Below, in pieces: positions 1 through 28,150 of a stretch of 64,000 bases of DNA. The position numbers were made by a program, and so were the translations under genes. The notes under the pieces are model-generated. The model made no database searches, had not been told where the DNA came from, and worked only from the letters and a program-made list of their open reading frames with translations. The DNA comes from Antitrichia curtipendula (lineage: Eukaryota; Streptophyta; Bryopsida; Hypnales; Leucodontaceae), in contig OX579633.1 of the NCBI GenBank assembly GCA_951230915.1, positions 49,056,029 to 49,120,028 of the forward strand. Reading direction: 5' to 3'. The first letter of the stretch is position 1. The number at the start of each line of letters is the position of its first letter.

Positions 1-142
1 AGAAAGACATGGGAATTTGAGTGGGATAGTCCAAACCCTTGTGTGTGCTGGACCAAACATGCAAATCTGTTGATTTGATGTTTTGGAGTCATTAGGGTGA
101 TTATTTAGAGTTCTAGACACTAGAAATTGTTGACTATCCAAA
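1..142. other. Non-coding edge sequence
   Basis: AT-rich sequence with no recognisable gene or repeat; it precedes the inverted-repeat element that follows. Confidence 0.5.
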
Positions 143-601
143 AATTGCAAAATTGCCAAAAATTGCCAAAACATTAGAGAAAATTTGGACTCTCGAGAAG
201 GCCGCTAAGAAGTGCCGGAAGGGACCCTTGTATTACATTTATTTTGGCTTGACAAATTTTTTTCCCCTATTATTGCTCATTGTGAGTTTCACAATTGTCA
301 GAACATTGATTACAAAAGAAATATTACTCAAATGGAGGAAGGGGCGACAATTATTATTTTTAAATACATAACTATACATAACACATAACTATACATAAAC
401 TATACATAAAAGAAGGAGTATAAGTGATAGTTCTTTACGAAGTTCACACAAGCTAACATTGTATCTCTGACAAAAATGCTGTCCTTTTCCTAGCTCCATA
501 GGACTCCCCAAATAGAGTGGCTTGTCAAAGCTTGACGGCCTTCTTAAGAGTCCAAATTTTCTCTAATGTTTTGGCAATTTTTGACAATTTTTGACAATTT
601 G
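143..601. mobile_element. Small fold-back / MITE-like element
   Basis: Two inverted arms of about 60 bp (143-203 and 538-600) match with few mismatches. Both contain the block AACATTAGAGAAAATTTGG or its complement, and both end inward at GAAGGCC. The ~335 bp between them have no convincing coding sequence; the short open frames are what AT-rich DNA gives by chance. The arrangement fits a non-autonomous fold-back element. I could not identify a target duplication, so the superfamily is open. Confidence 0.55.
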
Positions 602-2912
602 AAGTTTGGCAATGGGATTTGTTTTTTTGAGGTGTTTTTGATGGTGGTTGTTGATATTTTTCAAGAGTTGATAGCTTGGCAAAACGAGAGAGACAAAGAC
701 CGGTTGACTTTTAGAAATTATCGGACCATTTACTACATTAATTATAAATTTTATTAGTTCATTTATTGAAATAACTTTTAGAAATTACAAAGATAATTAG
801 TGGGATAATTTTAGAAATTACTAAGGTAGTTATTGGGGTAATTTTGAAAGTTACCAAAATAATTACTAGAGTAACTTTGAAGTTGTTTTTAAAAATTACT
901 ACAATTTAAAAAAGACTTTTTCTAGAACATCTCTTATCAATCAAGAAAAAATGACTAACATAGTAACAAAGGTGTAGAAAAACAAATTTGTTCACGTGTT
1001 CTAAGTGATTTTAAGAGGACAAGGGCTTCACGTGCACTTATACACAAAAACAAACAATTAGTATGTTTTTGTGCGCATGCGAGGTGTCTTCAACCTTTAA
1101 TTACTTGTTATCATTATCACCCAAAATAATTCAGAAAAGAATGGAATGGCAAAACTGTAAAGTCTCTACTATATAATGATAGGATCAAGATAATAAACCC
1201 AAAAACCTGGTTGGAAGATGCAAATTGTGTGGAAGTCATTCTTGAGAGGAAACAATCTTTAGCCAAAAAGTAAAAAACCCCAGATGTACTTGCACTTCAA
1301 AAGTATAACTTAAAATGTAGAAATCATGATAATTTAACAAATCAATGGAATTTCAACAATTATAGTACCACAAACAAAGTTGAGTTAACTAGCAATAGGA
1401 AGGAAATTAGTTTCAGTCAAAAACTTGAGAGTTTTGAGTGAGAAAGAACAAGTGAGTAACCACCCAACACACAAAGAAGCTTGAGTATATAGGTTTATTC
1501 CTGTTATTATGTCCCATGTGGTAAACTGTTGATGTGAGTGTGGACTAATTACATGCAAATCCAAGTAATTAGAGTCCCCAACTACCAAATCTAGTGGGAA
1601 CTAAAGTCATCATTAGTTGTATGTTCATATGTGATGAAGATCATATATTAAAAAATCAGCTGCTGCAGAATTGGTAGTTAATTAAATCACTAATTATGGT
1701 AGTTAAACATCACTTTGCTGAGTTGTGAGTAATAACACTTGTATTCAATCTTAATTGCCAAAATGTAGGGGATCAAATTATGAGGATCCATGAGAGGTAA
1801 TTTAAGTATGATCCATTGATGAGATTTAAGCACCATAAAATGTGCATCAAAATCTTCATTCCCTCTAAGATTAAACTTGGAGCCAAAATGACAAGTATCT
1901 GTTAGAAAGCATAAAAAATGAAAATCACATATTCATATGACCATTCTTAAAATGCATTCAAATATATACCAAAATAAATAGAGAGAAGCCTCTATGTGTG
2001 TATATAAATGGCATTATATGTGTTTTAAAGAGATATATAGAAATATAGCTGTAAAAATATATCTTTAAATATATAATCATATATATAAATACATACATGT
2101 ATCCATACATACATAAGTAGGAATTTATGCTTAGGTCTTCTCAAGTCATGTTTTAGATTTTTAAGTATTTTTGTGTCTAATATGTATAAGACCATATTGG
2201 CAGACTATATAATATTCTCAAGAGTGTCTCTAGGAACCTCTCTTGAGTTGTAAATCTAAAATAAATAAATAAATTGTTGTGGTTATTTTCTATTATAATA
2301 GGAGCTGATTTTAGTTTGAGAAGTATAAAAAGAGGCCATTTAAAAGGGTTTAGAAGAATTTCAGTTGATTTCAGGCTTGTTGCTTGTAATTGTGAAGCCT
2401 TAGCCTATTTTGAAGGCTTTTTTTTATAGCTTTGTAACCATTGTTGTTGTCGGCGGAGTGGATCACACCATTACTCAGCTTCATTTCTTGTTGTAGTGAT
2501 GAAGTGGGAATTATGACCCACATGGTTGAGACTTGCTTGTTTTTACAGTCAAATTGGAGTAATGACCAATAGGTTGTAAGTTTGAAATTTAGGAGCCATT
2601 TTCACTAATGGTATCTTGTAGTATGCCGTTGGTTCTACCTGTCCTATATCCCGTGGTTTTCTTATCCCTACCTGGGCACTGAACCAACCTAGAGCCGCAA
2701 TATAATAGGTCAACGGGGAGCAGTTTGACGGTGGCGTATAAGATTTGACATTCAAGCTTCGTTTATGGTATAGATACGGACCCGTGGCTACAACACGTCA
2801 GAAGAGGTTGATACTCGAAGTGAGGAGGGTGGAGAGAAGCCATTTTTGCCATTTTTAATTATTGATCCATCAAATACCTAGGGGATCAACGCCTTTGGCA
2901 ATATAAAAGACC
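602..2912. other. AT-rich intergenic stretch
   Basis: No gene is supported. Around 770-900 a degenerate ~50-bp unit built on TTTAGAAATTAC/GTTAC words repeats two to three times. 1,980-2,110 is rich in TATATA words. A TATAAAA-like box near 2,328 followed by T-rich sequence, then GC-richer DNA from 2,600, could be the remains of a long terminal repeat and leader of the element whose gag-like frames start at 2,913, but I found no matching second copy. Confidence 0.4.
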
Positions 2913-3395
2913 ATGGCAGTGAATCAGTGGTTCGCAACTACTACTCCGGGAGAGCCAAAGGCGTGGCCTTTAATGATTGAAAGACCATATTTTGATCTTA
3001 GCAACGAATACAACGACAACGCAACGCTATGTTCAATGCTTGGTAAGCCTTTGAGTAGCTGCCCAGCTATCTTGAGTTTGAAGTGTTGTAGGCTTATGAC
3101 TCTTGATTTGAGGATCATAGATTTGAGATCAAAGAAATAGAGGACTATTAGGCTCAAAGAATAAAACTAGTCACTATGTTAAAAGAAGGAGCTACATTTC
3201 CTGCAGCTCAAGCTTCAAAAACTGATGACGAAGATGAAGAAAAGGGCGAGGAAGCTACCTTGGGCCTTGATGTGGCACAAGTTGCAAGGCTAAAATCCAA
3301 ATCCACTACTAGTAGTGTCAAGGGAACTACATCTACCTTCATCTTTCGATTGTCTTGAGCATCAACTAAAGCAATACACTAAAATTGGTAAATAG
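2913..3395 (+). pseudogene. Possible N-terminal gag remnant of the DNMT-carrying retroelement
   Basis: An ATG at 2,913 opens a short frame (MAVNQWF..., 75 codons). A second frame (3,176-3,358) carries an acidic run (DDEDEEKGEE) followed by a serine/threonine-rich stretch, and in a shifted frame by residues like CLEHQLKQYTKIG. The composition resembles the N-terminus of a retroelement gag. It lies upstream of the undoubted gag fragment at 9,101-9,132 and 13,981 onward once the intervening insertions are removed. I have no motif proof, so this assignment rests on position and composition. Confidence 0.3.
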
Positions 3396-9639: not shown

Positions 9640-10165
9640 TAGCTCTAAATTCTACCTCTAAATTAACTCTAGGCTTTTACTCCTAATTTTAATCCTAAAG
9701 TTTTTACTCCTAAATTTAACCCCAAAGTTTTACTCCTAATTTTAATCCTAAAGTTTTTACTCCTAAATTTAACCCCAAAGTTTTACTCCTAAATTTAACT
9801 CCTAAATTTAACTCCTAAATTTAATTCCTAAATTTAACTCCTAAATTTACTCCTAATATTTAACTCCTAAATTTAACTCCTAAATTTACCCCTAAATTTA
9901 ACTCCAAAAATTACCCCTAAATTTAACTCTAAGTTTTAATTCCCACAGTAACTCTAAATTTTAACTTCTATCTAAAATTTACTCCTAAATTTAACTCTAA
10001 AATTACTCCTAAATTTAACTCTAAAATTTACTCCTAACTTTAACTCTAAAATTACTCCTAAATTTAACTCTAAAATTTACTCCTAGATTTAACTCTAAAA
10101 TTTACTCCTAAATTTAGCTCTAAAATTACTCCGAAATTTAATTCCAAATTTTACTTCCCACACTA
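9640..10165. repeat. AT-rich tandem array, ACTCCTAAATTTA type
   Basis: Dozens of copies of an 11-13-bp word (CTCCTAAATTTAA / CTCTAAAATTTA) in imperfect higher-order order, interrupted near 9,940 and 10,150. The inverted counterpart in copy A (7,400-7,750) is shorter and more diverged. Confidence 0.85.
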
Positions 10166-11084
10166 ACTCTAAATTTTAACTTCTATTTCTAATTTTTATC
10201 TTTTCTTATCACGGTGTACTTTTCACGTGGAAAGGGCTAATTAAGGAGATCAATGCTAAAGAGGAAAAAACACAACACCAAGTATGGATTCAAAAACTCA
10301 CCTCGTCACTTCCGGTGTCGGAAATACGCTCGTCCGCATTCGTGCGTACATTCCCATACTCCATGGTGGCCCTTGGGTGGTGGGACCTTTCCCAATTTCA
10401 CCACTTATGTTTCGAAAATTAGAACCCGTGCTATCTAACTTCTTTCTTTCCCTCTTCTTTCCTTCTCTCTCCTTTTCTTTCCCTTTCTCTCTTTCTACAC
10501 TAACACTATTCTACCTAAGCTTTGATGGGTGTCTTACAACTATAGATTCAAACCCCAAGAAGGTTTAATGTCCCTCCTACTCTCTTACACGACCTTGTTT
10601 TCGTGTCATCCTAATCCTACCTCCTAATGGTCACTATGAATTCTTAAGATTTCCCTTCTAACACCTATTTAGCTAAGCCTAGGGCACTATTTATTGTCTC
10701 TCTCCCCTTTCTCCTATTTAATTCTATGACTCACTAACCTCCCTCCATTGTGTGTAGGTGTGATTTTAGTGAGAGTCGAGAGTTGTTTGATGCAGGTATG
10801 GAGGTGCTACTTATCCTTTCCTCCCCCCTCCCTTTTTGATTTTAGACCCTATTCTCTACCCCAATCCCTACTTAGCAATAGGTCAATCTCCCATTCTCTT
10901 TTGTTTTGTTTATCTTATCTTTGTTTTGTCCTAGTGTGAGAGAAAACCAAAAAATTAAAAAAAAAGAGTCCAGAAATGGGGACCGAGCTGGGGCCCCAAC
11001 TGCCTGCCGAACCAAGCCTGGCCTCCCGGTTGGCTGGCTAGCTGCTGGGGGGTCGGTCTGTGATGTCTGATGACGTAACCTAGT

Positions 11085-11230
11085 CTGTTTGGTTTTCGAC
11101 TTGATCTGGTCTGTTTGGTTCTCGACTTGATCTGGTTTGTTCTGGCTCTCGACTTGATCTGGTCTGTTTTGGTTCTTGACTGATCTGGTCTGTTTGGTTC
11201 TCGACTGATCTGGTCTGTTCTGGCTCTGGA
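11085..11230. repeat. Tandem array, GATCTGGTCTGTTTGG type
   Basis: Five to six copies of a ~30-bp unit containing TCTGGTCTGTT and TCTCGACTTGA, with small indels. It is part of large repeat copy B. Confidence 0.85.
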
Positions 11231-11299
11231 CCTTGACTACTTAAGGGAAGAAACTGGATTTTTTGGCAAACTGGATTTTTGGTGAACTAAAGGAAAATA

Positions 11300-11470
11300 C
11301 TTTGGGAAAATAGGACTTGAGGGAAATAACACTTGGGGAAAATAGGACTTGAGGGAAATAGGACTTGGAGAACATAAGACTTGGGGAAAATAGGACTTGA
11401 GGGAAATAGGACTTGGAGAACATAAGACTTGGGGAAAATAGGACTTGAGGGAAATAGGACTTGGGGAACA
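11300..11470. repeat. Tandem array, AATAGGACTTG type
   Basis: About eight short units (GGGAAATAGGACTTG, GGAGAACATAAGACTTG) in a ~50-bp higher-order pattern. The repeats create long spurious open frames on both strands. Confidence 0.85.
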
Positions 11471-11481
11471 CTAGACTCACT

Positions 11482-11605
11482 AGAAACTTGGAGGACAACT
11501 AGACACACTAAAACTTGGAGGACAACTAGACACACTAAAACTTGGAGGACAACTAGACACACTAAAACTTGGAGGACAACTAGACACACTAAAACTTGGG
11601 GAACT
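11482..11605. repeat. 26-bp tandem array
   Basis: Four to five near-identical copies of a 26-bp unit containing ACTTGGAGGACAACTAG. It abuts the preceding array and shares its ACTTGG core, so both probably expanded from one seed word. Confidence 0.9.
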
Positions 11606-11770
11606 CGGAGACTCACTTAACACTTGGGGAACAACTAAACTAAGAGAACTTTGGGATTAGCTAAACTTCACTAAATGCAAGGGAACCTACCTATCTTGGA
11701 AGCTAAACTCTGGAGGTTTCTACAAAGGTCTTGAAAACTAGACTTTGGAACTAAACATGGGGGAAGTGCA

Positions 11771-12018
11771 AAGCTTCGCCGTTAAGTTGGTTTTAACACC
11801 AACTTTAGGACTCCTTGACACCTCGGGGGTTCAAAGCTCCGCCGTCTATACTTTTAACACATGCTTTAGGACTTCAACTTTGTCACTAGTTCAAAGCTTT
11901 GCCGTTAAGTTGGTTTTAACACCAACTTTAGGACTCCTTGACACCTCGGGGGTTCAAAGCTCCGCCGTCTATACTTTTAACACATGCTTTAGGACTTCAA
12001 CTTTGTCACTAGTTCAAA
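11771..12018. repeat. 123-bp direct repeat, two near-identical copies
   Basis: The segment starting near AAGCTTCGCCGTTAAG recurs 123 bp later with almost no change. The unit is divisible by three, so a frame on the plus strand runs through both copies with a 41-residue repeated peptide, but nothing marks it as a protein. The motif TTCAAAGCTTCGCCGT recurs further downstream (12,113, 12,200). Confidence 0.9.
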
Positions 12019-13980
12019 GCTTCGCCGTTTCCAAAGGGGGTCCACACACTGGAAGAGACTTTAGAAGAGGGAAAAAAACTAAACTTTTAAAGACGAAAAT
12101 ATACACAAGGTCAAAGCTTCACCGTTCCGGAGGGGGGTCCACTCAACAAGGAGAAGATTAGAAGAGGGTTGGGATAACTTTTAGAAAACATGCACAAAGG
12201 AGGTTCAAAGCTTCACCGTCCCTGAGGGGGGTCCGCTCAACAAAGAGAAGGTTAGAAGAGGGTGTAAGAAAAAACACAAAGAGAAAACACACAAGTTAGG
12301 CCACGTGGCAACACAAAGCTCATACGCTAAAGGCCCTCCAAAGCGGCATCGCCAAGGTACGGTGGGGGGTGACTTTAGGATTAGTACAAGATACAAAGAA
12401 GACTCTTAAAACTTCACAAGTTAGACCACAACATATACAAGAGAGAGAGGGAAGCTCTCCACTTACAACAAGGTACCAAAAACTTCACAAAAGAGTATAC
12501 AAAACAAGGTAAAAGGACCTCCAAGGACCTTCAAAGCTTGAAAATAAGCAACTATGGAGCCAAAAGTGCTCCAAAAACACCGTAGAGGTTTCTTAGCTAA
12601 AACACCAAAAATCCCAACATAAGTTGGACCCACGAACCCAAAACAAGATTTGGAGGTACTACAAGTATTGGAGGTGTTCAAGAGAGAAAAATGGGGACCT
12701 TAAATAGGTTTCCAAGGCCCCACCTTCCCCTCAAGAGCTCTAAAGTAACCTTATCAACTTGGATTTTCATCCTCATCTTCAAAGATTTTCATCCTAATCC
12801 CTAAAAAACTACTTTTACTTATTTACGCTGGACCAACCTCCTAACTTTTGGAGATTTACTCCAATTGTCAAACGGATTGCGCCATTGGCTCCAGATCGCC
12901 GTGTTTCTTTCATGACCCCCCTCTCCCCTGTATCGAGGACAAAAAACCATCTTAGGCTAATTTAGTTTTAAAAACTAAACCGTGGTAAAATCCTAGATAT
13001 TGGGGGTCTCCTATTTTGAGAAATGTAAATAGCTTAGGGTCTCCGGTAGGTGTGAGGGAGTCGGAAAAGACTCTTGGTTGACTTCGTTCCGCCGTCGTAT
13101 GGTCCCGGAATGCCGGTCAACGTGGCGGGGACCCCGCCACGTGATTAATTCTCGAGGAATCTCGCCGGTTCGGGTACTTGCTGCTATGGGAATGTCGCGA
13201 AACTTCACGGAGCGCATTATTAACATAAAACAAGCTAGTCTAATTTTTAGTGAGATTTTCTGGCAACTTGGGTAATTTCCATGAAATTCCCGTTGGAGGT
13301 TATCAGGGTTGACCACCCGCAAAAGGTTCTTCTGCAAGTCGGAAGATGACGGGTTTTTTCACAGGACCTCTCATGGGGTCACATGAAAGATGTGCAGGTG
13401 CGTTTCCGTATCTGGCACAATTGGTCAGTGGAGATGAATTGGTCATCTCCTTGAGTTATCGACGATACGGGAATCTTTTGCAGATAGAGGAATCTTGGCG
13501 AATCAATTTCGTCGTTGGACTCCTGACATGGGATTTACCCTAGTACACCATCCTTGGGCGGTAGATTCTTCCACGGACCCGGTCTTGCGTTAGTGGCTCT
13601 TGCATGCTAACAATCGGGGTTTGGAGAATTTCTAAACCTAACTCTGGGACCCGACCTAATGGCCTCGTTGTGGATCCCTTGAACCGACTTAGCCATAAAT
13701 TGCCACATTCATGGTGGAATTTAGCCCTTTTGGGCCTATGTGACTTGAATCCTACAAATCTAACCGTTTCGCTCTTTCTACCTATTTTTGGGCCCGGTTT
13801 GGTGGGATTCTAAGTCTAAATACAAATCTAGACCAAATACTATAATGGGTATGTTACAACCCTATTTTGGTTCTACACTCTTTTTATGGCTTTTTGGATA
13901 TTTTTCTTAACTTTAAATTGCAAATTTCCAAAAAAATAATTTTACGAGTCCCAAGTGACAAATTGGGAGCTCACTATGTA

Positions 13981-15370
13981 CCATATTCAAGACTTCAAGA
14001 AAGAGTCTGGAGACATTTCTTGTATCATATATGAAAAGACTTTCTAAATTTGCCTGCAAGAGTAGAGATTCATTCACAGAGCGCCAATTTGTGGAGCTTT
14101 ACATGGAAAAACAAGATAAAAAGATCCGCGACATGGCACACCCTCACATGTTGCTAGCTTATGAAAGTTGAGCTACCTTGGCTCAAATCTTTGCCATTGT
14201 AGAGCAATTGGATCGAGGGTTATGTGTGGAAGAAATCAGTAGATTGTCATCCATTATGACTTCAACAACAAGCCAATCCAAGGATGTTGTTAGTGGCACT
14301 ACTAGCAAGTCCCTAGCAAGAGCTAAGGGACTTCTAAGGCCTCAAAAAAAGTTGTTATGGCAGCTGAAGTGGAGGTGACGACCAACTTTTGCATGCAGTG
14401 TTGGAATTGTAGATTGTTAGGCCACGGAAAAGGGATTGTCCTACAAATACATCATCTGAAGGCAAGAAAGGTGGGCAACCAACTATCAACAAGGACAATG
14501 CACCTACAAACAAGGGACAACGGAAAAAGGCACAAGATGGAGATACACCTCTAAAGTGCACATATACACTTTGTAGTCGAGTTGGTTACACAGAGGACAA
14601 GTGTTAGGTAAAATTAAGGCCTTAATCATTCAGCCCACAAGCTGCTCAAGAAGGTGGAGCAAATTATGGAGGCAATAGTCTTAAGGTATGCATGGAAGAG
14701 TTGCAAAACACTCTAGCATTGCTTGTTTCAACAACAACAAAGACTACACCAACATCTTCTAGTGGCTTAAAGCCTGGACTAGACAAGTTTGAGTACGGTG
14801 CACTTGGTGAAGTAGTTGCAGCAGTGGCTACTAGATTACAAGCCAACTCTTTGCTAATTGCATCTATGGTGGAAGAAAATTTAGCCACTCAAGGTGGACT
14901 TCATGTTCGTCACCAAGGGCCTCCTAATAGCATTGGGCAATCAAGATTGCTATTGATATTTGGCCTAGCGAATGTGGCAACTACTCCATTACTGGTAGAA
15001 GAAATTCATCTAAAGAAGGAGACATGGTGAAGAGTTTGACTTTCAAACTGTTGGAGGTTCCATTGTTTTTGGGATTCAGTTGCAAAGTGACAACTTTGAT
15101 GTAGCTGTTGTACATCATATGGCAAGAAAGATGATGCAAGGTACAGTCCAAATGCGTGCTAATGTGGCCATGAGGGAGACAAAAGAATCTTCTTTAGTTG
15201 ATAGTAAAAAAGGCATACGGAAAGATATTGCAAAGGTAGTAATAGATGCCTTGTGATGTTGGAAATGATGGCTAAAGGAGCCTCCTTCACAAGCAGAGTT
15301 TAATAAGAGCTTGAATTCAAATGGAGAAGTTATTGAAAGTGATGTTGAGGTTGCCACAAGCTATTTGGCA
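13981..15370 (+). pseudogene. gag of the DNMT-carrying Ty3/Gypsy-type element (decayed)
   Basis: The frame entering from 9,132 continues here. After a frameshift near 14,030 it gives capsid-like residues (FTERQFVELYMEKQDK, then EQLDRGLCVEEISRL). A zinc-knuckle-like CxxCxxxxGH block lies near 14,390-14,450 and a second Cys-rich block near 14,555-14,605. A long alanine/serine/threonine-rich frame (14,692-15,030) and a frame to 15,357 follow. Stops and frameshifts throughout mean no functional product. gag packages the element RNA; the knuckles are the RNA-binding part. The assignment is supported by order: the protease and DNMT follow. Confidence 0.6.
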
Positions 15371-15439
15371 ATATTATTAGCCCGAGCAACTCGTGAGCGT
15401 TTACAAGTCAAACCTGGAGTAGTGCGTTTGGCCAATTCT

Positions 15440-15900
15440 GATTATGTATTTTCTGTGACTCAAGGTGATACATCTCTAGTATTTTCATAGAAGGTGCTAC
15501 TTGATTTTGGTGCTTAACTATTTATGTTAGGAAAAATTTTAGCTTAAAATTTGGGATTTTTTTCTAATGACTTAGATCCATGTTTTTTTACTATAGTAAT
15601 ATCACTTAATGACACATAACAATCTACGAGATTGATGAAAGAGCCTCTACAATTTTAGTTTAAGGTAGGCACTTATGCATATACTTACATCTCTGAGAGG
15701 TGTGTTGTAATAAGTGCTACTAGTTATCACATTCTTTTGGAGTAGAAAGCTTTGTATCCCATTGATTTTGATCATGATTTTTAGACTGAAAAGGCATGGT
15801 TTCGACCAGGTTGGTCATAAGGAGATGAACAAAAAAAAGTGATTTCCATCATTTTTGGTGTTTTTGCTGAGGTAGATGAAGATTTGGTGGCAGTATATGG
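15440..15900 (+). pseudogene. Aspartic protease region of the DNMT-carrying element
   Basis: A VLLDFGA motif near 15,497 (normally D-S/T-G-A in retropepsins; here Phe replaces Ser/Thr) is followed, through stops, by ATSYHILL and ALYPIDF-type blocks (15,715-15,770) and by EKAWFRPGWS (15,790-15,820). These match, from memory, the protease and downstream segment of plant retroelements of this type. The active-site substitution and stops make it inactive. It lies between gag and the methyltransferase. Confidence 0.55.
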
Positions 15901-16164
15901 ATGTGTTGCAGAATGGATGTGTTGCAGAATGGATGGCTACTAGAGATTTGTTGTTTGAGGGAACATATCTGCTATAGACTCTCTCTAGAGTTGGATATGC
16001 AAACAAATAATAAAATTAGTCTATTTGAAAGACATTCCAACTGAAGGATCCCATTGCACTATAAAATTCACCAAAAGACTTGGTTTAAAAATGCAAGGAG
16101 TTAATGAAAGAAGTAGATCAACATCTTTGATAGCCACAATCCACATTGCCACTTCTACAACAGC

Positions 16165-17038
16165 TTGTGGATCTTCCTGATGATCATGATAGGCATAGTT
16201 CTTATAGAACTATTTGTTGGACTTGGTACTAGTTTGGCAATAGTTTTAGAGGCAAGATTGTCCATACAGAGTTATACATATGTAGATAATAATATTGTGG
16301 TGAGTAGAGCTACTCAACATCATTTCAAACAACTAAAGATACGATATTAAAACAAATATCAGCAAACGCTACTCAAGGATGTATGTCTCGAGTTCTTTCA
16401 AACATTACTTTGATTAGAAAGGAAGATCTTCTGAGGTTAGGCAAAGTGGACCTTGTGATGGCTAAATGGCCTTACCAAGGGCATTTCCGAGTTGGTTTTT
16501 GCCAAGGATTCCAATATCCATGCTCAAATTTATTTTGGGAGCTCTTGCAGTTGCTGCATTGGTTGCAACCTAGACAAGCTACAAATGTGACTTATATTCT
16601 TGAAACCGTGCTTCTATTGAGAAATGTTGGAGCTCAAGTTTACAAAGATGTAAGGATAGTATGTTAGCTCCTTAGAGAACCAGTTGTAGTGGATGCTGCA
16701 GCTCTTGGTTCTTATGCCCATCGTTTATAGTGGAAGTGGACCATTTTGGCTCATATGCTAGGGATTTCAATGGCATTACATTACATTAGCCGTCCAGAGG
16801 GAAGACACCTTGATGACCTTCTCGATAAAGGATGATCAGCTCAAGTAGTGGTATAAGAAAATCAACCACCATTGCTTATAGTCAATCGTATAGGGATGCC
16901 ACGATTGGCATTTTTGAGATTGATGAGCTATCCTCGATCTTTTGTTTTTTGTAATGGTGGACCCGGCTTGGTGTTTAATAACACTTCTATGAGACTAGAA
17001 AAACATTGTGCTACTAAAAAGTATCAAATGTCGTGTTG
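16165..17038 (+). pseudogene. C5-cytosine DNA methyltransferase domain within a retroelement (decayed)
   Basis: A Rossmann-type methyltransferase start (LIELFVGLGTSLAIVLEA, motif I, AdoMet binding) at 16,198-16,252 is followed by an acidic/aromatic motif II-like YTYVDNN. After a one-base frameshift near 16,348 come KVDLVMAKWPYQGH (motif IV region), YILETVLLLRN (motif VI, normally E-N-V) and VVVDAAALGSYAHRL (motif VIII region). A C-terminal block with LMSYPRSFVF and GGPGLVFNN follows. The catalytic Cys of the P-C-Q motif is Tyr (codon TAC at 16,472-16,474), and there are stops at 16,665 and elsewhere, so it is dead. C5 methyltransferases captured by retrotransposons are known from charophyte algae and dinoflagellates. 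Gene order and protein resemblance place this in that class; an independent host-gene fragment is unlikely because protease and RT remnants flank it. Confidence 0.75.
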
Positions 17039-17776
17039 AAAGCGGTTTGCTTTGAAAAATCACGGGAATTCTGGCTGCAATTAGAAATGGTTTAGGAATT
17101 AAAGAAATTGTAGTTGTATAGATTCTTTAAACTCAATCGTCGAATCTCCAAACTGCTCTATATTGACTTATCATGTAGTGGTTCTAATTGGGTTCAAAGG
17201 TTAGGGTAGGTGATAAAAAACCACGATCATCGGTCGGGTAAAACGGGACGGCCAGACCACAAGTTGAATTGTCCGAGGGATTGGATCCTAAATTTCAAAC
17301 CCATGATGACTAACAATCATGCCTCTCCAATAGGAACAACAAAAAAATACAACCATGTAGGTGATGAACTTTACTTTGTTGTATCCACAACACAAAAAGA
17401 GGCTAAGCAATGGTTTCTCCCACACCACCCGCAATAACAAAGTTTTACAAGGAAAGACAAACTACAAGCCACAACACACAAGTCTTTGTCTCCAACTCCT
17501 CCTTCAACTTCAACTCCTTCACTGAATTTCAATTGAGTACCATCAATGTTTCACAACTCCAAATGAGATGAATAAAAGCTTTTTGAAAAGCTTACACAAT
17601 TTTCTACTTATCTTCCAAATCTCAAGTCATTCTAACACTCTATCCGATTTCTATGGCCATCCGAAGTTTTGGCCTCTAAAATTGAAGACAATAGACTCTT
17701 CTTCACTTCAACACACACAACTCTCTCATAAATACTCCAAATAGAATGAATGATAAGAGGCCTGAATGATACTTGA
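17039..17776. other. Unassigned segment where the RT core should be
   Basis: No reverse-transcriptase palm motif is visible between the methyltransferase and the RT connection remnant. 17,200-17,770 reads as unrelated low-complexity sequence with a GAATGATAAGAGG word duplicated at 17,747 and 17,774. A deletion or replacement of the RT core is the likely cause. Confidence 0.45.
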
Positions 17777-17794
17777 ATGATAAGAGGCTTCGGA

Positions 17795-18060
17795 GTACAA
17801 GAAACAAAGGTGGCGATTTTGAAAAGGATTCTAATTTCTAAAAATGTGTCAAGGTTAAGAACTTTTATGGAATTAACAAACTATTATCAATGGTTTGTTT
17901 GTGGATTTAGTCTCATGACTAAATCTTGGACTCAATTGACTCAAATTGATCAAGAATGGATATGAGATTCTAATCAAGAGAAATCATTTGAAGCTTTGAA
18001 AGGAGCACTCAAGTGGTTCAGCACTAGTGTTGAGAAGGCCTGATGCTTGACGGACTGATG
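17795..18060 (+). pseudogene. Ty3/Gypsy reverse-transcriptase connection / RNase H start remnant
   Basis: Residues RLRTFMELTNYYQWFV, then KSWTQLTQIDQEW, then (after one stop) NQEKSFEALKGAL match the thumb/connection of Gypsy pol, canonically LRSFLGLANYYRRF ... PL..L.....W.....E.AF..LK. After the next frameshift (VLRRPDA) the RNase H domain is cut short. This proves the host element is Ty3/Gypsy-like. Confidence 0.8.
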
Positions 18061-18074
18061 CTCAACGGCCTTAG

Positions 18075-18335
18075 AAAAAAAAGATGGACATGAGTGCAGA
18101 GACAATACAAAGAATTGTGCTCCTTGTCATTTGCCAATTGAAGGGACTGTAGATCCAAAGTTGGCAGTGGTTCCACCTGGATACAAATGTTTTGTTTGAA
18201 GAGAAAGAAAAAGTGCTACAATGATGTTGTTGTGTGATTTATGTCAATGAAGTTGGCACATGGCATGTCTTTGATTGTCATTGAGTGGTCTTCCTACTAG
18301 ACATTGGATTTGTCCCCGTTGTAAAAAGTAATCAG
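18075..18335 (+). pseudogene. PHD-finger remnant in the DNMT-carrying element
   Basis: One frame reads NCAPCHLP, a linker with VDPKLAVVPPGYKC, then zinc ligands in PHD order: CFV[stop] (second Cys mutated to TGA at 18,197), CDLC, WHMAC, and HWICPRC with the diagnostic Trp two residues before the final CxxC. This is the Cys4-His-Cys3 layout of a PHD finger (18,188-18,329). PHD fingers usually read histone H3 tails; in a retroelement pol this could direct integration or recognise chromatin, which is inference. Three in-frame stops kill it. It begins where RNase H ends, so RNase H/integrase may have been deleted, bringing the two together. Confidence 0.7.
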
Positions 18336-18882
18336 TTCTTGCTACTTTTTTAAGTGGTTACTAATGATTTTTCTTATTGACGGAGGATGCAGTTACTTGG
18401 TAACATTTCATGTTGAAGTATAAGCTATGGCTCTTACTATTAACTTTTGGATGAAGATTTAGTGGAGTCCAACTACAAAGTTCGAAGCAACTAAAAATGG
18501 GGCTCAAATGCACCCAGCTTATTTCTTTACTTATGATTTATTAAATTCTAACAATAGATGGGACTTATTGTCTATCTTTTTCAACATGTTGATTGTATAA
18601 AAAATATAGTAGAAGTTATTTGACTTCTGTTTCTAGCTAAGTTACAAGGGCACTTTGTTCAGCTAAGGAAACAATTAGATGGTTGTTCATTCATGTTTCA
18701 TGATTGTGTGGATTTGCTTTTGACTATGCGTATATGTTTTAGTATTTGTAGCTGACAACATCTACTATTAACAATACAGAGTGGTATAACAGTTGTCTTG
18801 TTATTTGATGACGAGAAGTTGTTAGGCTCTATTGGGCTTATAGGAGTTGGTTGTAGGTTTTGTATAGCCAAATTGGCCATGT
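18336..18882 (+). other. 3' portion of the DNMT-carrying element
   Basis: Stop-rich remnant of coding sequence. Peptide scraps such as KFEATKNGAQMHP and LLNSNNRWDLLSIFF (18,480-18,590) suggest the polyprotein continued past the PHD finger. Function not recognised. Confidence 0.4.
18668..18795 (+). repeat. Direct repeat flanking the chromovirus, copy 1
   Basis: Matches 25,312-25,430 at roughly 85% by eye (shared words GGTTGTTCATTCATG, TATATGTTTTAGTA, ACAACATCTACTATTAAC). It is separated from copy 2 by the chromovirus plus ~400 bp of host element, so it is older than that insertion. Confidence 0.75.
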
Positions 18883-19353
18883 TGTCATGACTACATCATT
18901 CCAACTAGACGAGATCCCACCAAAGGAAACGAAGAATCAGGAAAGGAACATCCCAGGAAGCAGTTACTCTAAGTTAGTTATGAATGCCAGGAATAAAGCC
19001 CAGTGAGGGGGGCGTTGTCCCTCACTTGACATATTCTCAATACAGTGCAGGTTCTGATTTAGAGATTCTTTGTTCTGATGATTAAGCTCTGATTCAGATG
19101 TTTGTTCTGATGGTCACTCGTTTGCTCAGTATGTTATGATGTACTCAATATGCTTGATTGATTGAAGATGTTGTAATATGGATCATTGATCAAAACTCAT
19201 CTCAGAGAGGATGTTGGGTCGTCCGTCCTATTACATGGATGATTCTCAAGCATTGGAGTGAGTGCACGATTGCACATGGGTCCGGGAGAGTGGAGACTGC
19301 GATTCACTTGGAAGCATCGGTTGGATTCTTGCTTTGGATTCCAAATCCTGACA
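18883..19353 (+). repeat. Chromovirus 5' LTR
   Basis: 471 bp, TGTCATGA...CTGACA, 466 of 471 positions identical to the 3' LTR by eye. The sequence directly after it (TTATGTCGAGTCATAG) is the primer-binding position but does not look like the usual initiator-Met tRNA complement. Confidence 0.95.
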
Positions 19354-19487
19354 TTATGTCGAGTCATAGACTGCCCATGCTTCCAAGGTGAGGGTCGGAG
19401 GAATATCAAACTGAATGTGGCCAGTGACTGGGGTTTTAATAGCACTCGGGTGTATTTGATTTTTGTCGTAAGCATTTTCAAGACCGA

Positions 19488-20575
19488 GTGATGGATCTGG
19501 AGAGGTCACACGAGGAAGCTAGACCACCACTGCCGGAGGGGATTGGATCTGAGTGGGTGAACTTCATCCAACAGCAAGTTCAAGCAATATTTCAAACAGC
19601 CATTCCCCATATCGTACAACAGATTGCAGAGCGTGCTGTAGCACAACCAGATCCAACATCTCCCTCAGCGTCCAAGAGAGTGAAAGATCCTACACAATCA
19701 AGGTCTGAAGAGCGCAAAAGGTGGAGATTTTGAAGGCCGGGAGTCAAAGGTGGCGGCACCTGAAAAGTTTACTGGAAAGAAAGGCGGGGAAGTATACAAA
19801 TGGTTTGCCCAACTTTGCTTGGTGTTCCGAGGTAAGCCACGATCCTATCGTTATGACGAAGATTAAATTGCTTATGCACTCTCCTATATGAGTGGTGCAG
19901 CACAAAATTGGGCGATGCCGATCCTTCAAGCCTTGGATGAAGGACGGCATCATGAATTATTGATTGATTATAATGCTTTTCGAGAAGCTATTATTGTTGT
20001 TTATGGAGATATTGATCGCAAGAGTACGGCGGAGGATCGCTTTGGAAAAATCCGACAAACAGGGTCAGTACGTAGCAACTTATATTTCCATGTTTAATGA
20101 ATATGCCGCCTAAGTTGATTGGAACGAACCAAGTTTGATGGCACGATTTCGTGGAGGATTAAAAGAGGAAATTCTTGATTCAATTGCCACCGCGGAAAGC
20201 CAACCTCGTCGACTTCATGACTGGATGACAATGGCCTCACGGATTGATGAACGGTTGTGGTCTCGGTGCCAAAGTCGACATCCATCCATTCCATCTTCGC
20301 ACCCACGGGGTCATGTTAAGCACTCCCAAACTACACCACGGAGTTTAGGACTAGTACCAATGGAGATTGATGTCGTCTCTGCAACAACAGCTATGGCAAA
20401 GATGGCAACGGACCGCCTAGAGTATCAAAAGCAAGGAAAGTGTTGGAGTTGTGGACTACATGGGCATGTGCGATCAAGATGTCCCACTAATCCTTCTAAA
20501 CCATTTTCCCTCGCAGTTATAGGAGAAAAAGAGGTTGGGGTCAATGAATCGGGAAAAGGTCGAGCCCGGGACTGA
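19488..20575 (+). pseudogene. Chromovirus gag
   Basis: The start ATG at 19,488 lies 134 bp after the 5' LTR. The order is an acidic/proline N-terminus, a capsid core (FTGKKGGEVYKWFAQL, ALSYMSGAAQNWA, RFRGGLKEEILDSI) and a CxxCxxxxHxxxxC zinc knuckle (CWSCGLHGHVRSRC, near 20,440-20,485). Frameshifts near 19,720 and 20,060 and a stop at 19,864 break it. Gag forms the virus-like particle and binds element RNA. Confidence 0.85.
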
Positions 20576-20619
20576 AGCCATTCATTCGGTACCCGGGTGC
20601 GCCTCAAACGGCAGCTAGT

Positions 20620-21257
20620 ATGATCTCGAAATGGGACCTCATTGATGGGGCTGCTACATTTGGGCAATTTCGACAATCAGACGAAACAATGATGCCACAC
20701 TATTTACGTGCTACCACAGAGCCAGGAGCACATCTCACAGTGGACGCACAAATCAACTCGCTCACAGCAACCACCCTAATTGACTCGGGTGCTACCGGAG
20801 TGTTTATGCATCATGATTTTGTTCAACAGTGTGGAGCAGAGGTACAGCCTAAGTTGACTCCTCGAGAAGTTCGGGTCATAGACGGAAGAGTAATTAATTA
20901 TGGGCTTATCACCATGAAGCAACGTTCAAGTTGACGGTGGGGAGTCACCACGAGATCATTGTAGCCGATCTCACAAACACTGGCCGTTATCCTTGTATTT
21001 TGGGGACACCATGGCTTGTTCGTCATGACCCCACAATCCGATGGTCTCGAAATGAGGTGATTTTCAAATCAAAGTACTACCATCAGCACTGCCAAAGCCC
21101 ATCAATGCTAGTGTCCAAACCAACGGCGACCAAGCCAAAGGAATCTTTAGCAATACCAGTCTCAAGGCCCAATACGGGCAAACCGAGGGAATCTCAACGT
21201 GATCCCTTGATTCACAACAAGGAAAGAAGGCCGCTTGGCACAACTTCAAGGATGTAA
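20620..21257 (+). pseudogene. Chromovirus aspartic protease
   Basis: Retropepsin active site TTLIDSGATG near 20,779-20,808, flanked by ILGTPWLVRHDP, the conserved C-terminal block. A frameshift near 20,925 separates the halves, and a stop at 21,255 separates protease from RT. It would cut the Gag-Pol polyprotein. Confidence 0.85.
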
Positions 21258-22856
21258 CCTGGGGGGAAACTATCCACTGCAGGTTATCAAGAAGTGAAGC
21301 CCTTGTCTGGTGGGCCGCAGAGGTCAGACCAAAAAATTTCCTCTGAGGTTGACCGGCTAATTCCAAGGAAACAGATTGTTCAATCCCGACTCACTACACC
21401 AAAACATGCCTTGGTGTCAGTAGCAGCATTTCGCCTATCAGCAAAACAAGCTAAACTTTATGTACTAGAAGTGTCAGAATTGGCTAATGGAAACAATGTC
21501 GAGGAACAACTTCCTCAACATATTCCACAGGAATATCATGATTTACGGAAGGTTTTCAATGAAAAATCCTCCAATGAATTACCCAATCATAGTGGGTCGG
21601 TTATGAAGATAGAATTCAAAGAGGGACAAGAACCTCATAATATGGGATTGCGGCCTATGTCCCCAATAGAGTTGGAGGAACTTCGACGATATCTTGAAGA
21701 AAATTTAGGCAAAGGTTGGATTCGACGCTCCAAATCCCCGGTCTCGGCCCCCATTGTGTTTGCCCGAAAGAAAGATGGATCCATCCGAGTGTGTATAGAT
21801 TACAGGAACTTGAATAAGGTCACAATAAAGAATCGATACCCCCTTCCTCTAATTCCTGACCTAACTAACTGGCTAGCAGGTGCAAAAATATTTTCAAAAT
21901 TGGACGTAAGGCAAGCTTATCATCGAGTGCGAATGGCAAGAGGCCATGAATTTAAAACAGCATTTAAAACTCGCTATGGATTATTTGAATATTTAGTAAT
22001 GCCATTTGGCTTAACCAACGCCCTTGTCTAGTTTCAAGCCTACATGCAAAACATTTTTTATGATCTATTGGATATCTCGGTGGTAATTTATTTGGACGAT
22101 ATTTTCATTTTTTCAAAAGATTTAAAAGAACATCAATCAATTGTTCGAGAAGTTCTCCAACGGTTGCATCGGTATGGTCTTTATGCCAAAGCCTCTAAAT
22201 GCCAATTTCACCAAAGTTCCGTGGAATTTTTGGGAATGCTGGTTTCAGAAAAAGGGTTGGAGATGTGTGAAGACAAGGTCGAGGCTATTCAAGAATGGCC
22301 CACCCCAAAGACAGTAAAGGAAGTCCAAACTTTCCTAGGATTTGCCAATTTTTACCGCCGCTTTATCTCCGATTATTCAAGAATCAAGATTCCTCTTACA
22401 TCGCTGATACGAAAGGATCAACGGTTTGAATGGACCCCTTTAGCAAATGAAGCATTTAAAGAACTCCGTTCTTGCTTCACTAAGGCTCCGGTGCTAATTC
22501 ACCCTAATTTTGAACTTCCTTTTGTAGTAGAAACTGATGCCTCTGATAAGGCTACAGGAGCTATTTTATCACAACGCGGGGAAGATGGACATCTACACCC
22601 ATGTGCTTATCGGAGCTCTAAGATGCAATCGGCCGAGTAAAATTATGACATATACGACAAAGAATTGTTGAGCATTGTACTTGCATTTCAAGAATGGCGG
22701 GTTTACCTTGAAGGGTCACCACATGTGGTCCAAGTAATTTCTGACCACAAAAACCTTGAACATTTCTTAACAACCAAATAGCTCAATCGGTGACAAGCTT
22801 GATGGTCCGAGCAACTTTCGGCATTCAATTTTGAAATTCACCATTGGCTAGGGACA
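21258..22856 (+). pseudogene. Chromovirus reverse transcriptase and RNase H
   Basis: RT motifs in order: [15 protein letters not shown], a [13 protein letters not shown] catalytic block, [13 protein letters not shown], and YLDDIFIFSK (YxDD metal-binding site). Then the connection (FLGFANFYRRFISDYS) and RNase H (VVETDASDKATGAILSQ). Stops: TAG 22,029; TAA 22,638; TAG 22,779; TGA 22,791; TGA 22,800. The last four fit single C-to-T changes of Gln or Arg codons judged by family pattern. The frame is otherwise continuous from 20,931 to the integrase. Confidence 0.9.
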
Positions 22857-25000: not shown

Positions 25001-25311
25001 CATGTATTGGTCAATGGGAAGCTAGACTAATGTTTTGAGACTATAAAAAATGTCAATAGAGCTATTTTGAGGCTCCTTTGGGGTGGTTGTAATCCTAGGC
25101 CGTCCCTTTGCTTGTCCATTCTCTTCAAGTCTTGTGTGAAAGTTTCATAGAGTGTTAGGAGATGGTATACCTTGAATGTTGTTTGTAAATGATGGCGGTG
25201 TTGCCAATTTACTTAATCTAAGGTTTCTCCTTGTGTACCTCAAGTTGTGTGCAAAACTAGTCTAATAGAGATAGAGTAGAAGCATTTGGGTGTGTTTGAG
25301 ATGCTTATTAT

Positions 25312-25430
25312 TGGATGGTTGTTCATTCATGTCTCACCATATTGTGGATTTACTTTTGGATATGTGTATATGTTTTAGTACTTATAGTTGACAACATCTA
25401 CTATTAACGATGCAGAAGGATACGACAGAA
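25312..25430 (+). repeat. Direct repeat flanking the chromovirus, copy 2
   Basis: Partner of 18,668-18,795. The pair could be a fragment of an older LTR pair or a local duplication. Confidence 0.75.
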
Positions 25431-28150
25431 TGGCCATAGAAGTCAGAAAAAATAAAAAATCGGAAGTCAGATGAATAGAAAATTATATTAATTGTCATTG
25501 TTTGTATTTTTAATTAATTAATTATAGTGAAATAAAAAATATCTAAAAATAGACCATTGGTAAGGACATTATGGTGATGAGATTTCATCAAAAGAATGAA
25601 CTTCAAACCATCTTCTATATTCAAAAGCGTGTGCGCAATGGAACCCCTTTTGGGGCCTATTTGGACAAACGTGGAGGACATAAAATAATATATTTTTTGA
25701 TGCCCCTCACATGGGACATGTCCAACTAGTGTAGAAATAGACCACCAAAATTTCTTTCCTGATTCATTAAATTTGGATACTCTTTAGTACAAAAAACACA
25801 AAACGTTGAAAGTGTGACAAATTAGAGAAATTTACTTTTAAATATAAAATTATTTTTGAATTTTTTTGAAAATAAGTGATACAATTTCAATCAAAACATC
25901 TAGAAATATATTTTTTGCTTTTGGCATTGGTCTTAAAACTCAAAAGTTATAGCTTGGACAAAAATTGGTTTTGCAAAATGCTACCAAAAATGGCCGGTGT
26001 TTCTTGCAATGACCCATTGTCGGTTTTGTTTGTCTTATCTCTTGTGGGTTGTTTTTTATCCCTACCTTGATTTGTAAGACAACCTAAAGCCCAAAAAGTC
26101 CTACGGCAATATAAAAAATTCAACAATCAAACCTCAAGATTTATATACAAATGCTTCTTCTTTTGTTTCTAAGTTATTCTTGGTTGCAACTAGAATTCTA
26201 GTGATTTCATGAAACAAACCTTTCTCTATCTAATATTTGGTGTTTCTACTATAAAAAAATTGAAACTGTGTGCTTTTGACTAAAGACAATTGGAGACACT
26301 AGAGGGACTTCTACTAGAGCCAAGTCAACATGGAGGCCATATTTTGTGTTTTGAAAAATGATTTTTTTCAATTGTTTTATCTCATTGAACAATCTACTTC
26401 TCACCATGTGCACATTTGCATTCAGTTCTTCCATCATTAATCTCTTATCATTACTTTATACATCTACTATAGAAACAAGCACCATGTCACTCACTGGGTT
26501 TACTTCTTCCGTTTATTTGTTTTTCTTCTTTAAATGTTTTTTTCTATTATTATTTTTACGCAATTGATTAAGTTTCTCTATTAAATGTGTCACAATGTCA
26601 TCTACCTTTCTTATCATAATAACCCCATGGAAAATTAAAGATTTCATCCTATCATTTTTTACAATCTCTTTAAGAAACAAATTCTCTTCAAGCAATCTCG
26701 TTTAGTTTCACCAAATCCTCAAGAGGAATTGTTTCATAGAATGTTGGAGCCATTGTTTTTTTCATGATCATGTTGTATTAAATCATTCTGATGTATAATG
26801 ATTGTGCAAATTTTTTTGTCCATACTTCTTTTCCTTAAGCTTATGAATAAAAAAAGACAACTTGAATATTTGATCGTATTCATATATAATTCTTTGCAAG
26901 CTCTAGATCATGAGGCATTGTTTGTTGAATCAACACAATATTCCTAACTTGTAACATTTTTTGAGGTAAAATGATAAAAGAAGAATATAGAATTTTTTTT
27001 ACAAATTAAGTGAAAGAACAAAATAAGAATTGACTAATCCGTCACCTTCATCAATTCATAAGAAGCATACTTATAAAATATGTAATGTACCTTAGGTCAA
27101 TACATTGTCCAAATGTTGTACCACAAAATATGCCTTTGCCACTTTCTACTTTTAGAGCCATCAATTGTAGCCACTTAAATATTCAAACATTCTAGCTTTG
27201 AAACTTTGAAACTCTTTGCCATTGAAACTCTTTGCAACTCAAACGTAAAAATATTTACCAATCAAACTCAAATCCACTTCTATAATTACTTTCATTAAAA
27301 AAATTCCATAATTCCATTCACAAATCCTCAAAGAGGCAAGCAAATTTTCAACCGCCAAACTTTATAGAGCCATACACAAAAAAAATGGAATCTTTTGCAA
27401 TGCTGGAAGTGCCGCCTCTACTTTCAATAAAGAAGAATAAGTGGCAATGTATGCATTGGATTGAAGCTTCTTGCAGCACTTCCAACTTTAAGTATCAGCA
27501 GTTTTGTTTATTGATTCAAGCCCCCCATGCCCATCACTATCTTTGTTGCTTCTACTCAACCACATATGAATTTAAAATAATACAAGAATGACACCAACAA
27601 GGAGCTATTAGAGTGGGGTTCTTTTAAGGTAGCAACCAATGGTTGGCTTTCCAATCTTTAATAGACTACAATAATCAATATCATTAATAACATAATTAAC
27701 CATCAATTATAATCTAATTAGTGGTAGACAAAATCTAAGGAATATACAAATAATGCAAGAATATAGGAACAAAAGAGCTAGTGAATTATACTACATAATT
27801 TAAGTCAATGATTACTCATAAATAGTGATTCCAAAAACTGAATTTATACATCAAACAAACAAATTTAAATGACGATTTTGCAAACACGAATGTTCAAAAC
27901 CAAAAGCTATAAAAACAAAAATTATAGAGTATAAAGTACTACACAACATTGGAAGTCCATAATAAGAAAAAGATTATTTTAATTACAATAAAGTAGACAA
28001 AGATGTTGAAACAAAGTATATACATAAACTTGATTTTTGTACTACACTTTAGAAGCCACTTAAAAATTAGTCCAGTGTCTTTTTGTAGCCCAAACAATTA
28101 TGCATGCTAGGATATAATTTCTTACACTTTTTTAAACTAATGGAAAAAGA
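25431..28150. other. AT-rich intergenic stretch
   Basis: No recognised gene. The short frames here (for example 25,876-26,070 + and 26,249-26,437 -) have no motif I recognise and look like chance frames in AT-rich DNA. Confidence 0.5.

What the first reader, a model, noticed from the sequence alone, without database searches (positions are those of the whole stretch)
13981..18335. Ty3/Gypsy-type element that carried its own DNA methyltransferase and a PHD finger
Read in order on one strand: gag, aspartic protease, C5-cytosine methyltransferase (LFVGLGTSLA, KVDLVMAKWP, VVVDAAALGSYAHRL), Gypsy RT connection, PHD finger (CDLC, WHMAC, WICPRC). Retroelements with captured methyltransferases are established for charophyte algae and dinoflagellates. 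A copy next to DEK1, in what looks like a land plant, with a chromatin-reading finger added, would extend that biology: an element able to write a mark on its own DNA and perhaps read histones. This copy is dead, but intact relatives may exist in the same genome.
Basis: partly seen in the sequence, partly recalled or inferred. Interest (0 to 1): 0.88.

Follow-up and report, generated by a model that had tools for sequence, protein, structure and literature searches.

The report
Jumping gene with own DNA methylase
The window holds a dead copy of a jumping gene, in what is likely a liverwort genome, whose better-preserved relatives in the same genome carry their own DNA methyltransferase and a PHD finger predicted to read histones, so the element would likely mark the DNA it makes and could choose where it lands.

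Summary
Confirmed and extended. The window copy is a decayed Ty3/Gypsy-type element with gag, protease, DNMT, an RT remnant and PHD on one strand. Better-preserved relatives lie in the same 400-Mb genome. In L031/L032, ORF1 (gag-protease-DNMT) and ORF2 (RT-RNase H-integrase-PHD) share a frame split by one UAG. That UAG is present in 19 of 19 loci where the joint could be read, with the tobamovirus-type leaky context CAR-YYA in 16. DNMT thus sits on the Gag side of a predicted readthrough stop, PHD on the Pol side. The DNMT is Dnmt3-type and under purifying selection (median dN/dS 0.12). 39 of 62 DNMT loci have a same-strand PHD 3'. The ends are not LTRs: TGTC...GACA, 4-bp target duplications (7 of 7 copies read), and A-coding-B-A-B in two copies including the window's. 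That matches the published charophyte KnitGypsy-Dnmt3. New here: likely land-plant host, integrase-tail PHD, conserved leaky UAG, and relatives with DNMT at another Pol position. Methylation, histone reading and readthrough are untested; no fully intact copy was found among ten.

The parts
1..3376 (+). Scattered pieces of the element's 5' body (1-171, 589-912, 2730-3376)
   Evidence: 73.7-82.5% nt identity, collinear, to the 5' part of the C3 sister copy L048
9036..9130 (+). 5' body piece between nested insertions
   Evidence: 77.9% nt identity to L048, collinear
12203..13974 (.). Another dispersed repeat adjoining the element body (not part of it)
   Evidence: 82.6% and 84.9% identity to repeats in L040 and L032
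13982..15352 (+). gag region, frame-broken
   Evidence: 77.8% nt identity to the C3 copy over 13982-15869; no Pfam gag hit in these pieces
15353..15913 (+). Aspartic protease region, stops inside
   Evidence: tblastn E 2e-15 to ORF1 of L031; 63.6% aa identity to L022
16192..16979 (+). Dnmt3-type DNA methyltransferase remnant; motif IV reads WPYQ, not WPCQ, at codon 16473-16475
   Evidence: tblastn E 2e-37; 62-71% aa identity to L015/L018/L021/L022 over piece 16356-16664
17015..17783 (.). Stretch without match to the sister copy; the UAG joint and most of RT are not recognisable
   Evidence: gap between matches 16543-17014 and 17784-18056 to L047
17784..18056 (+). End of RT / start of RNase H
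   Evidence: 79.3% nt to L047; tblastn E 1e-12
18071..18322 (+). Integrase tail (NCAPCHLP) and PHD finger, stops inside; about 2 kb of RNase H-integrase absent just 5', measured against the sister copy
   Evidence: tblastn E 4e-18; 71.7% aa to L047 PHD; sister-copy offset 2183 to 4141
18323..18791 (+). 3' terminal segment B1, ending TAACA; 18674-18780 repeats in B2
   Evidence: 80.2% nt to L047 over 18072-18783; 86% to B2
18792..18793 (+). 2-base spacer GT between B1 and A2
   Evidence: sequence; GC at the same place in L032
18794..18882 (+). A2, first part, starts TGTC; broken by nested Gypsy
   Evidence: 76.7% to A1 of the C3 copy; with 25001-25310, 94.2% to A1 in L051
18883..25000 (+). Nested Gypsy element (LTRs 18883-19182 and 24530-24829) plus adjoining sequence, inside A2
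   Evidence: LTR pair 99%; RT-IN match 21786-23957
25001..25310 (+). A2, remainder
   Evidence: 84% to A1 of the C3 copy
25310..25427 (+). B2, ends ACGACA: 3' end of the element
25428..25431 (+). Target-site duplication GAAT, matching GAAT before A1 upstream of the window (L051:2318-2321)
   Evidence: 3' flank read, 5' copy found

Best explanation
This is a dead copy of a Ty3/Gypsy-type retroelement family that carries a Dnmt3-type methyltransferase in its Gag-side reading frame and a PHD finger on the tail of its integrase, and its working relatives would likely methylate their own DNA copy and then use the finger, predicted to bind histone H3 unmethylated at lysine 4, to choose where to insert. 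Shown: domains, order, one frame split by UAG, purifying selection, termini and target duplications. Inferred: most ribosomes stop at the UAG, giving Gag-protease-DNMT in excess, and a few read through to add RT-RNase H-integrase-PHD, so the particle is stocked with methyltransferase at near-Gag level. Inferred: the enzyme marks the cDNA inside the particle. Inferred: integrase cuts the B|A junction (GACA-GY-TGTC) of a circular or end-joined DNA and inserts it with a 4-bp stagger, leaving A-coding-B-A-B when one junction is used and A-coding-B when both are used or B1 and B2 recombine.
For: Same-copy domains: ORF1 CCHC, weak protease hit (E 0.05), PF00145; ORF2 RT, RNase H, H2C2, rve, PF00628. 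UAG at the ORF1/ORF2 joint in 17 of 17 loci whose joint aligned, plus L015 and L022 of the window's own subfamily; CAR-YYA after it in 14 of 17 and 2 of 2. CAR-YYA follows 22 of 3880 TAGs in the 56 loci on one strand; 16 of those 22 are the joint itself, overlapping loci counted twice. Fold: model pLDDT 86.7, all 50 listed PDB matches DNMT3 chains; by sequence DNMT3A 50.5 bits, 4onj (a plant DRM, recalled) 36, HhaI 32, DRM2 25, DNMT2 17. dN/dS medians DNMT 0.12, RT 0.11, IN 0.09, PHD 0.21. PHD nearest by sequence to PHF12, CHD4, KDM5B, KDM5A, BHC80 and ATXR5 fingers and in tight fold matches to BAZ2A/B, UHRF1, ATXR5, BHC80. 4-bp duplications in 7 of 7 copies with both ends read. PR-DNMT-RT-RH-IN-PHD in one metagenome protein, P0066.
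Against: No activity was measured. None of the 10 copies fetched in long stretches has both ORFs fully open: L031/L032 has a gag frame break near its start, others have stops. PHD evolves faster than RT or IN, and some relatives lack a recognisable finger (P0074, P0081; P0083 and P0037 divergent). The finger's top Foldseek rows by E-value are PHF1/MTF2 chains aligned loosely (rmsd about 12). Other relatives have all domains in one ORF, so readthrough is not universal. L003, L004 and L016 depart from CAR-YYA. The circle-junction model rests on sequence alone; L055, an A-B unit, showed no target duplication.
Confidence: 0.6

Rival explanations
1. It is simply a land-plant member of the published KnitGypsy-Dnmt3 family, and the PHD was always there but not mentioned.
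For: Same Gypsy domains, Dnmt3-type enzyme, purifying selection (Ka/Ks < 0.2 in K. nitens) and the 'repeats as in DIRS' oddity, all met here.
Against: The paper's main text holds no 'PHD' or 'readthrough'.
Confidence: 0.5
2. The UAG is a true end; ORF2 is expressed separately by re-initiation or a spliced or internal RNA.
For: Many metagenome proteins end where ORF1 ends, several without Gln before the stop.
Against: Same frame across the stop, UAG in every joint read and a tobamovirus-type 3' context in subfamilies whose DNMTs are 46% identical (L015, L022 against L005).
Confidence: 0.2
3. The DNMT serves restraint: the element methylates and silences its own insertions, limiting harm to the host.
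For: The dead window copy is CpG-depleted (observed/expected 0.31, against 0.51 in the C3 copy, 0.73-0.74 in two better-preserved copies and 0.62 in the 42-64 kb part of the window), as expected after methylation.
Against: Host enzymes methylate plant transposons anyway (recalled); depletion does not say which enzyme acted.
Confidence: 0.25
4. DNMT and PHD belong to host genes that happen to lie near retroelement debris.
For: In the window alone the domains are weak and broken.
Against: 39 of 62 DNMT loci have a same-strand 3' PHD within 15 kb, 16 of them at 2.79-2.85 kb, and only 3 pairs lie any other way; shared termini and target duplications.
Confidence: 0.01

Closest known systems
KnitGypsy-Dnmt3 of Klebsormidium nitens (de Mendoza et al. 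2018, PMC5890265; abstract, section 9 and passages read)
   Same: Gypsy Pol domains, Dnmt3-type DNMT inside the polyprotein, purifying selection, repeats arranged as in DIRS
   Different: No PHD or readthrough in its main text; charophyte alga, not a likely land plant; sequences not compared here
SymbioDIRS-Dnmt3 of Symbiodinium (same paper)
   Same: Dnmt3 in Pol and A-coding-B-A-B repeats; two different domain orders coexist
   Different: Tyrosine recombinase instead of rve integrase; no relation to the Gypsy element according to that paper
Chromoviruses (Gypsy elements with an integrase chromodomain)
   Same: Histone-reader module on the integrase tail (recalled for chromoviruses)
   Different: PHD finger, not chromodomain; DNMT added; no LTRs found
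PHD domains in CR1-like LINEs (Kapitonov and Jurka 2003; title seen in a reference list only)
   Same: A PHD finger encoded by a retrotransposon
   Different: Non-LTR element, no DNMT or integrase (recalled)
Gag-Pol readthrough retroelements and tobamoviruses
   Same: In-frame UAG with CAR-YYA 3' context (CAA UYA as type I in PMC2754532, passages read)
   Different: The stop separates Gag-PR-DNMT from RT-RH-IN-PHD, so the enzyme lies upstream

Membership tests
KnitGypsy-Dnmt3-like elements | Un-rearranged Dnmt3-type DNMT within a Gypsy polyprotein | tested here: met
KnitGypsy-Dnmt3-like elements | Repeats A-coding-B-A-B | tested here: met
   L031/L032 and window copy; 5 other copies show A-coding-B only
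KnitGypsy-Dnmt3-like elements | Purifying selection on the DNMT, Ka/Ks < 0.2 | tested here: met
   median 0.12 over the 34 of 55 pairs with dS > 0.3; close pairs are higher, 0.32-0.81 against L005
KnitGypsy-Dnmt3-like elements | Groups with K. nitens copies in a tree | not tested
   no sequence known to be from K. nitens was obtained
Ty3/Gypsy | RT-RNase H-integrase (rve) order | tested here: met
Ty3/Gypsy | Long terminal repeats at both ends | tested here: not met
   ends A and B differ. In 9 head/tail comparisons only L031/L032 shares a long direct repeat of its own; L041/L042 shows a neighbouring copy (81.9%) and L035/L036 a short inverted match
Ty3/Gypsy | 4-5 bp target duplication, TG...CA ends | tested here: met
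   7 of 7 copies with both ends read; one 3' end decayed to ATA
DIRS/PAT/Ngaro | Tyrosine recombinase | tested here: not met
   rve integrase instead; no recombinase in the Pfam scan of L031/L032
DIRS/PAT/Ngaro | Split direct repeats | tested here: met
Chromovirus | Chromodomain after integrase | tested here: not met
   PF00628 at that place, no chromodomain reported
Type I (TMV-like) readthrough | UAG followed by CAR-YYA | tested here: met
   16 of 19 loci
Type I (TMV-like) readthrough | Measured readthrough | not testable with these tools
   needs a reporter assay
PHD fingers reading H3K4me0 | Cys4-His-Cys3 zinc ligands | tested here: met
   all 8 invariant in the 18 sequences aligned, which were chosen for having the finger
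PHD fingers reading H3K4me0 | Binding to unmodified H3 tail | not testable with these tools
   only nearness to such fingers

The most novel reading that the evidence does not exclude
An old green-lineage retroelement clade both writes and reads chromatin marks: it packs a Dnmt3 enzyme at Gag-like dose by stop-codon readthrough, methylates its cDNA before insertion, steers a PHD-tipped integrase to H3K4-unmethylated chromatin, and inserts from a circle-like B|A junction rather than from LTRs; the methyltransferase has moved within Pol while the finger stayed.
Probability: 0.35. Interest if true: 0.88.

Novelty: new variant of a known kind. Interest (0 to 1): 0.76.

Why it matters
[quoted passage not shown] proteins named from liverworts and a moss show an exception, at least outside tracheophytes. 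If the mechanism holds, the element sets its own methylation and its landing site, and retroelement-borne Dnmt3 becomes testable in Marchantia, a tractable plant (recalled) that has relatives of it. The A-coding-B-A-B ends with an rve integrase and 4-bp duplications also pose a clear question about how such DNA is made and inserted.

Tried and rejected
Pfam on window pieces alone could not establish the domains. I first took the 331-base repeat of L031/L032 for an LTR. Its strong matches (95% or more) are its own two copies and seven other sites; four of the seven are the 5' end of a fetched copy and one leads into body (L052); two were not checked. No fetched copy but L031/L032 has it at the 3' end. 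Reading the ends then gave A-coding-B-A-B. Of 31 weaker matches, four were looked at. A host-gene origin was rejected on linkage. Independent capture for the second domain order (RT-RH-DNMT-IN-PHD) was considered: that group is one clade in the DNMT tree (15 of 46 rows, 100/99; 44 of the 89 proteins used) and in the RT tree (9 of 26 rows, 100/99), which favours one move of the enzyme; the integrase tree did not resolve it (one clade in 10% of bootstraps), four of the 15 rows carry only DNMT-IN adjacency without RT, and no host DNMT3 was in the tree, so this stays open. P0081 (DNMT before the protease, no finger) is a long branch and was left aside. Own-genome counts are lower bounds, and one decayed element may count as two DNMT loci. 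RT relatives without DNMT could not be listed because that search did not complete.
Full report
Observation. The window copy is real. In the window alone the domains are weak (PF00145 E 0.22; finger frame broken). Against a better copy they are clear: protease 15353-15913, DNMT 16192-16979, RT/RNase H joint 17783-18010, integrase tail and PHD 18071-18322. The copy is dead: several frames, stops, catalytic Cys codon reading Tyr (16473-16475), and about 2 kb of RNase H-integrase missing next to the finger by comparison with the sister copy. Its subfamily includes L015, L018, L021, L022 and L047/L048, about 75-84% identical in DNA in the matched pieces.

Genome. G000 has 400 Mb in 303 contigs. 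A search with PF00145 gave 43 match pieces; the preserved DNMT gave 95 and the finger 119, lower bounds, and the weaker finger matches probably include host genes. Merged, 62 DNMT loci remain; 39 have a same-strand finger within 15 kb 3', 16 of them at 2.79-2.85 kb; 3 pairs lie otherwise. A liverwort is likely; the organism was not identified.

Coding plan. In L031/L032, ORF1 has the CCHC knuckle, a weak protease hit and PF00145; ORF2 (1050 aa) has RT, RNase H, H2C2, rve and PF00628, 41.5 bits against a cut-off of 24. The two share a frame with one UAG between. I fetched 10 copies in long stretches. L031/L032 alone has the DNMT part of ORF1 and all of ORF2 open, and its gag start lies in another frame; L033, L035 and L041 have stops or a frame change within ORF1. 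Gag was recognised by similarity to ORF1 of Marchantia protein P0006.

The leaky stop. The joint aligned above my score cut-off in 17 distinct loci; the rest were dropped from the count. UAG stands in 17 of 17, CAA before it in 16, CAR-YYA after it in 14; exceptions L003, L004, L016. L015 and L022, of the window's subfamily, have AAC UAG CAA CCA at the matching place. CAR-YYA follows 22 of 3880 TAGs in all 56 loci on one strand, and 16 of the 22 are the joint, overlapping loci counted twice, so elsewhere it is rare. PMC2754532 gives CAA UYA after a leaky UAG as type I and mentions readthrough candidates among rice Gypsy elements (passages read). In the metagenome relatives nearest the window, ORF1 ends in SSN in P0021, P0027, P0031 and P0034, STN in P0026. 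In Marchantia and other relatives the residues before the end vary.

The enzyme. By sequence it is nearest to DNMT3A (50.5 bits), then 4onj (a plant DRM, recalled, 36), HhaI (32), DRM2 (25) and DNMT2 (17); no chain named DNMT1 or CMT was among the 54 listed. Motif order is not rearranged as in DRM. The model (pLDDT 86.7, 31 sequences) matches DNMT3 chains in all 50 rows listed. Trp and Cys of motif IV, Glu of motif VI and an Arg of motif VIII are invariant in 31 aligned sequences. dN/dS, Nei-Gojobori, pairs with dS > 0.3: DNMT 0.12 (34 of 55 pairs), RT 0.11 (22 of 45), IN 0.09 (30 of 45), PHD 0.21 (21 of 36). Pairs are not independent, and close pairs show higher ratios (0.32-0.81 against L005), as expected of decay after insertion.

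The finger. It closes the integrase tail. All eight zinc ligands are invariant in 18 sequences chosen for having it. Sequence neighbours are PHF12, CHD4, KDM5B, KDM5A, BHC80 and ATXR5. By fold the first rows are PHF1/MTF2 chains aligned loosely (rmsd about 12); the tight matches (rmsd about 0.6-2.3) are BAZ2A/B, UHRF1, ATXR5, BHC80, KDM5B and DPF3 (model pLDDT 76, pTM 0.48). That many of these bind H3 unmethylated at K4 is recalled, supported by some PDB titles. Host DNMT3 uses an ADD domain for the same mark (recalled); I saw none in this element, so the finger may stand in for it (inference).

The ends. Copies begin TGTC and end GACA or a decayed form of it. Four-base duplications: L031/L032 TGCT, L033/L034 GTTA (3' end decayed to GATA), L035/L036 AGTC, L041/L042 AGTC, L044/L043 ATGG, L048/L047 GCAA, window copy GAAT. 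For the window copy the 3' flank was read first and GAAT was then found at the 5' end upstream of the window. Ends of the other four long copies were not determined. Two copies of distant subfamilies, L031/L032 and the window copy, continue after B1 with a 2-base spacer (GC, GT), A2 and B2; A1/A2 identity 97.9% and 94.2%, B1/B2 98% and 86%. Five show A-coding-B only. Of five further A sites fetched, two are A-B units without body (L053, L055) and three run on into body; L053 has AATG on both sides if a TGTCA doubling is allowed, L055 shows no duplication. De Mendoza et al. give A-coding-B-A-B as the DIRS arrangement and report the same repeat structure for KnitGypsy-Dnmt3. Here the integrase is rve-type and leaves target duplications. 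GACA-GC-TGTC is palindromic (GT in the decayed window copy is not) and looks like an unprocessed end-to-end junction; that is the basis of the insertion model.

Relatives. P0066 holds protease-DNMT-RT-RH-IN-PHD in one 2358-aa protein; P0068, P0072, P0073, P0075 and P0076 hold RT-RH-DNMT-IN-PHD; P0081 has DNMT before the protease. P0002 (DNMT) and P0084 (RT to PHD) are each listed on a 6232-base contig, probably the same one. The second order is one clade in the DNMT tree and in the RT tree; the integrase tree does not resolve it. In the RT tree the nested window Gypsy, used as the root, and P0081 fall outside the group (100/98).

Print. Ten paper searches showed, in the titles and abstracts listed (lists capped), no report of DNMT retroelements in land plants or of a PHD finger on a plant Gypsy integrase. 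Three listed papers that hold 'PHD' were checked: it is a host gene in two and a reference to CR1 LINEs in one. PMC6317226 (passages) holds neither 'PHD' nor 'methyltransferase'; PMC9985172 on liverwort genomes likewise (passages). PMC12344493 (passages) restates DNMT3 in streptophyte and dinoflagellate retrotransposons. Preprints, most subscription journals, figures and supplements were not searched.

Noticed in passing
window 18883-24829: A Gypsy element with 99%-identical 300-base LTR ends and 5 stops in the RT-IN frame read, inserted inside the A2 repeat of the DNMT element.
   Followed up: partly
window 12203-13974; L040:6562-8324; L032:7496-9000: A dispersed repeat of about 1.8 kb, 83-85% identical to the window's, adjoining DNMT-element bodies in the window and in L040.
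   Followed up: partly
window 5000-12540: Large inverted repeat (for example 5154-5251 / 12298-12395, 92%) enclosing short tandem arrays of about 13, 16 and 27 bases; looks like a palindromic transposon.
   Followed up: no
P0081: Metagenome Gypsy polyprotein with a DNMT-like domain before the protease and a weak Dam-like hit (E 0.009): a third DNMT position.
   Followed up: partly
G000:C9:7685171-7685691 and C6:18414315-18415149: DNMT and PHD matches almost abutting (0 and 47 bases): deletion derivatives, or a fused DNMT-PHD worth a look.
   Followed up: no
G000:C199:29510-29878 (L001): Best PF00145 hit lies on a 48.5-kb contig with long overlapping frames on both strands, bacterial-looking: likely contaminant.
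   Followed up: no
window 54576-55133: Calpain domain (PF00648, E 4e-32) of the DEK1-like gene.
   Followed up: yes
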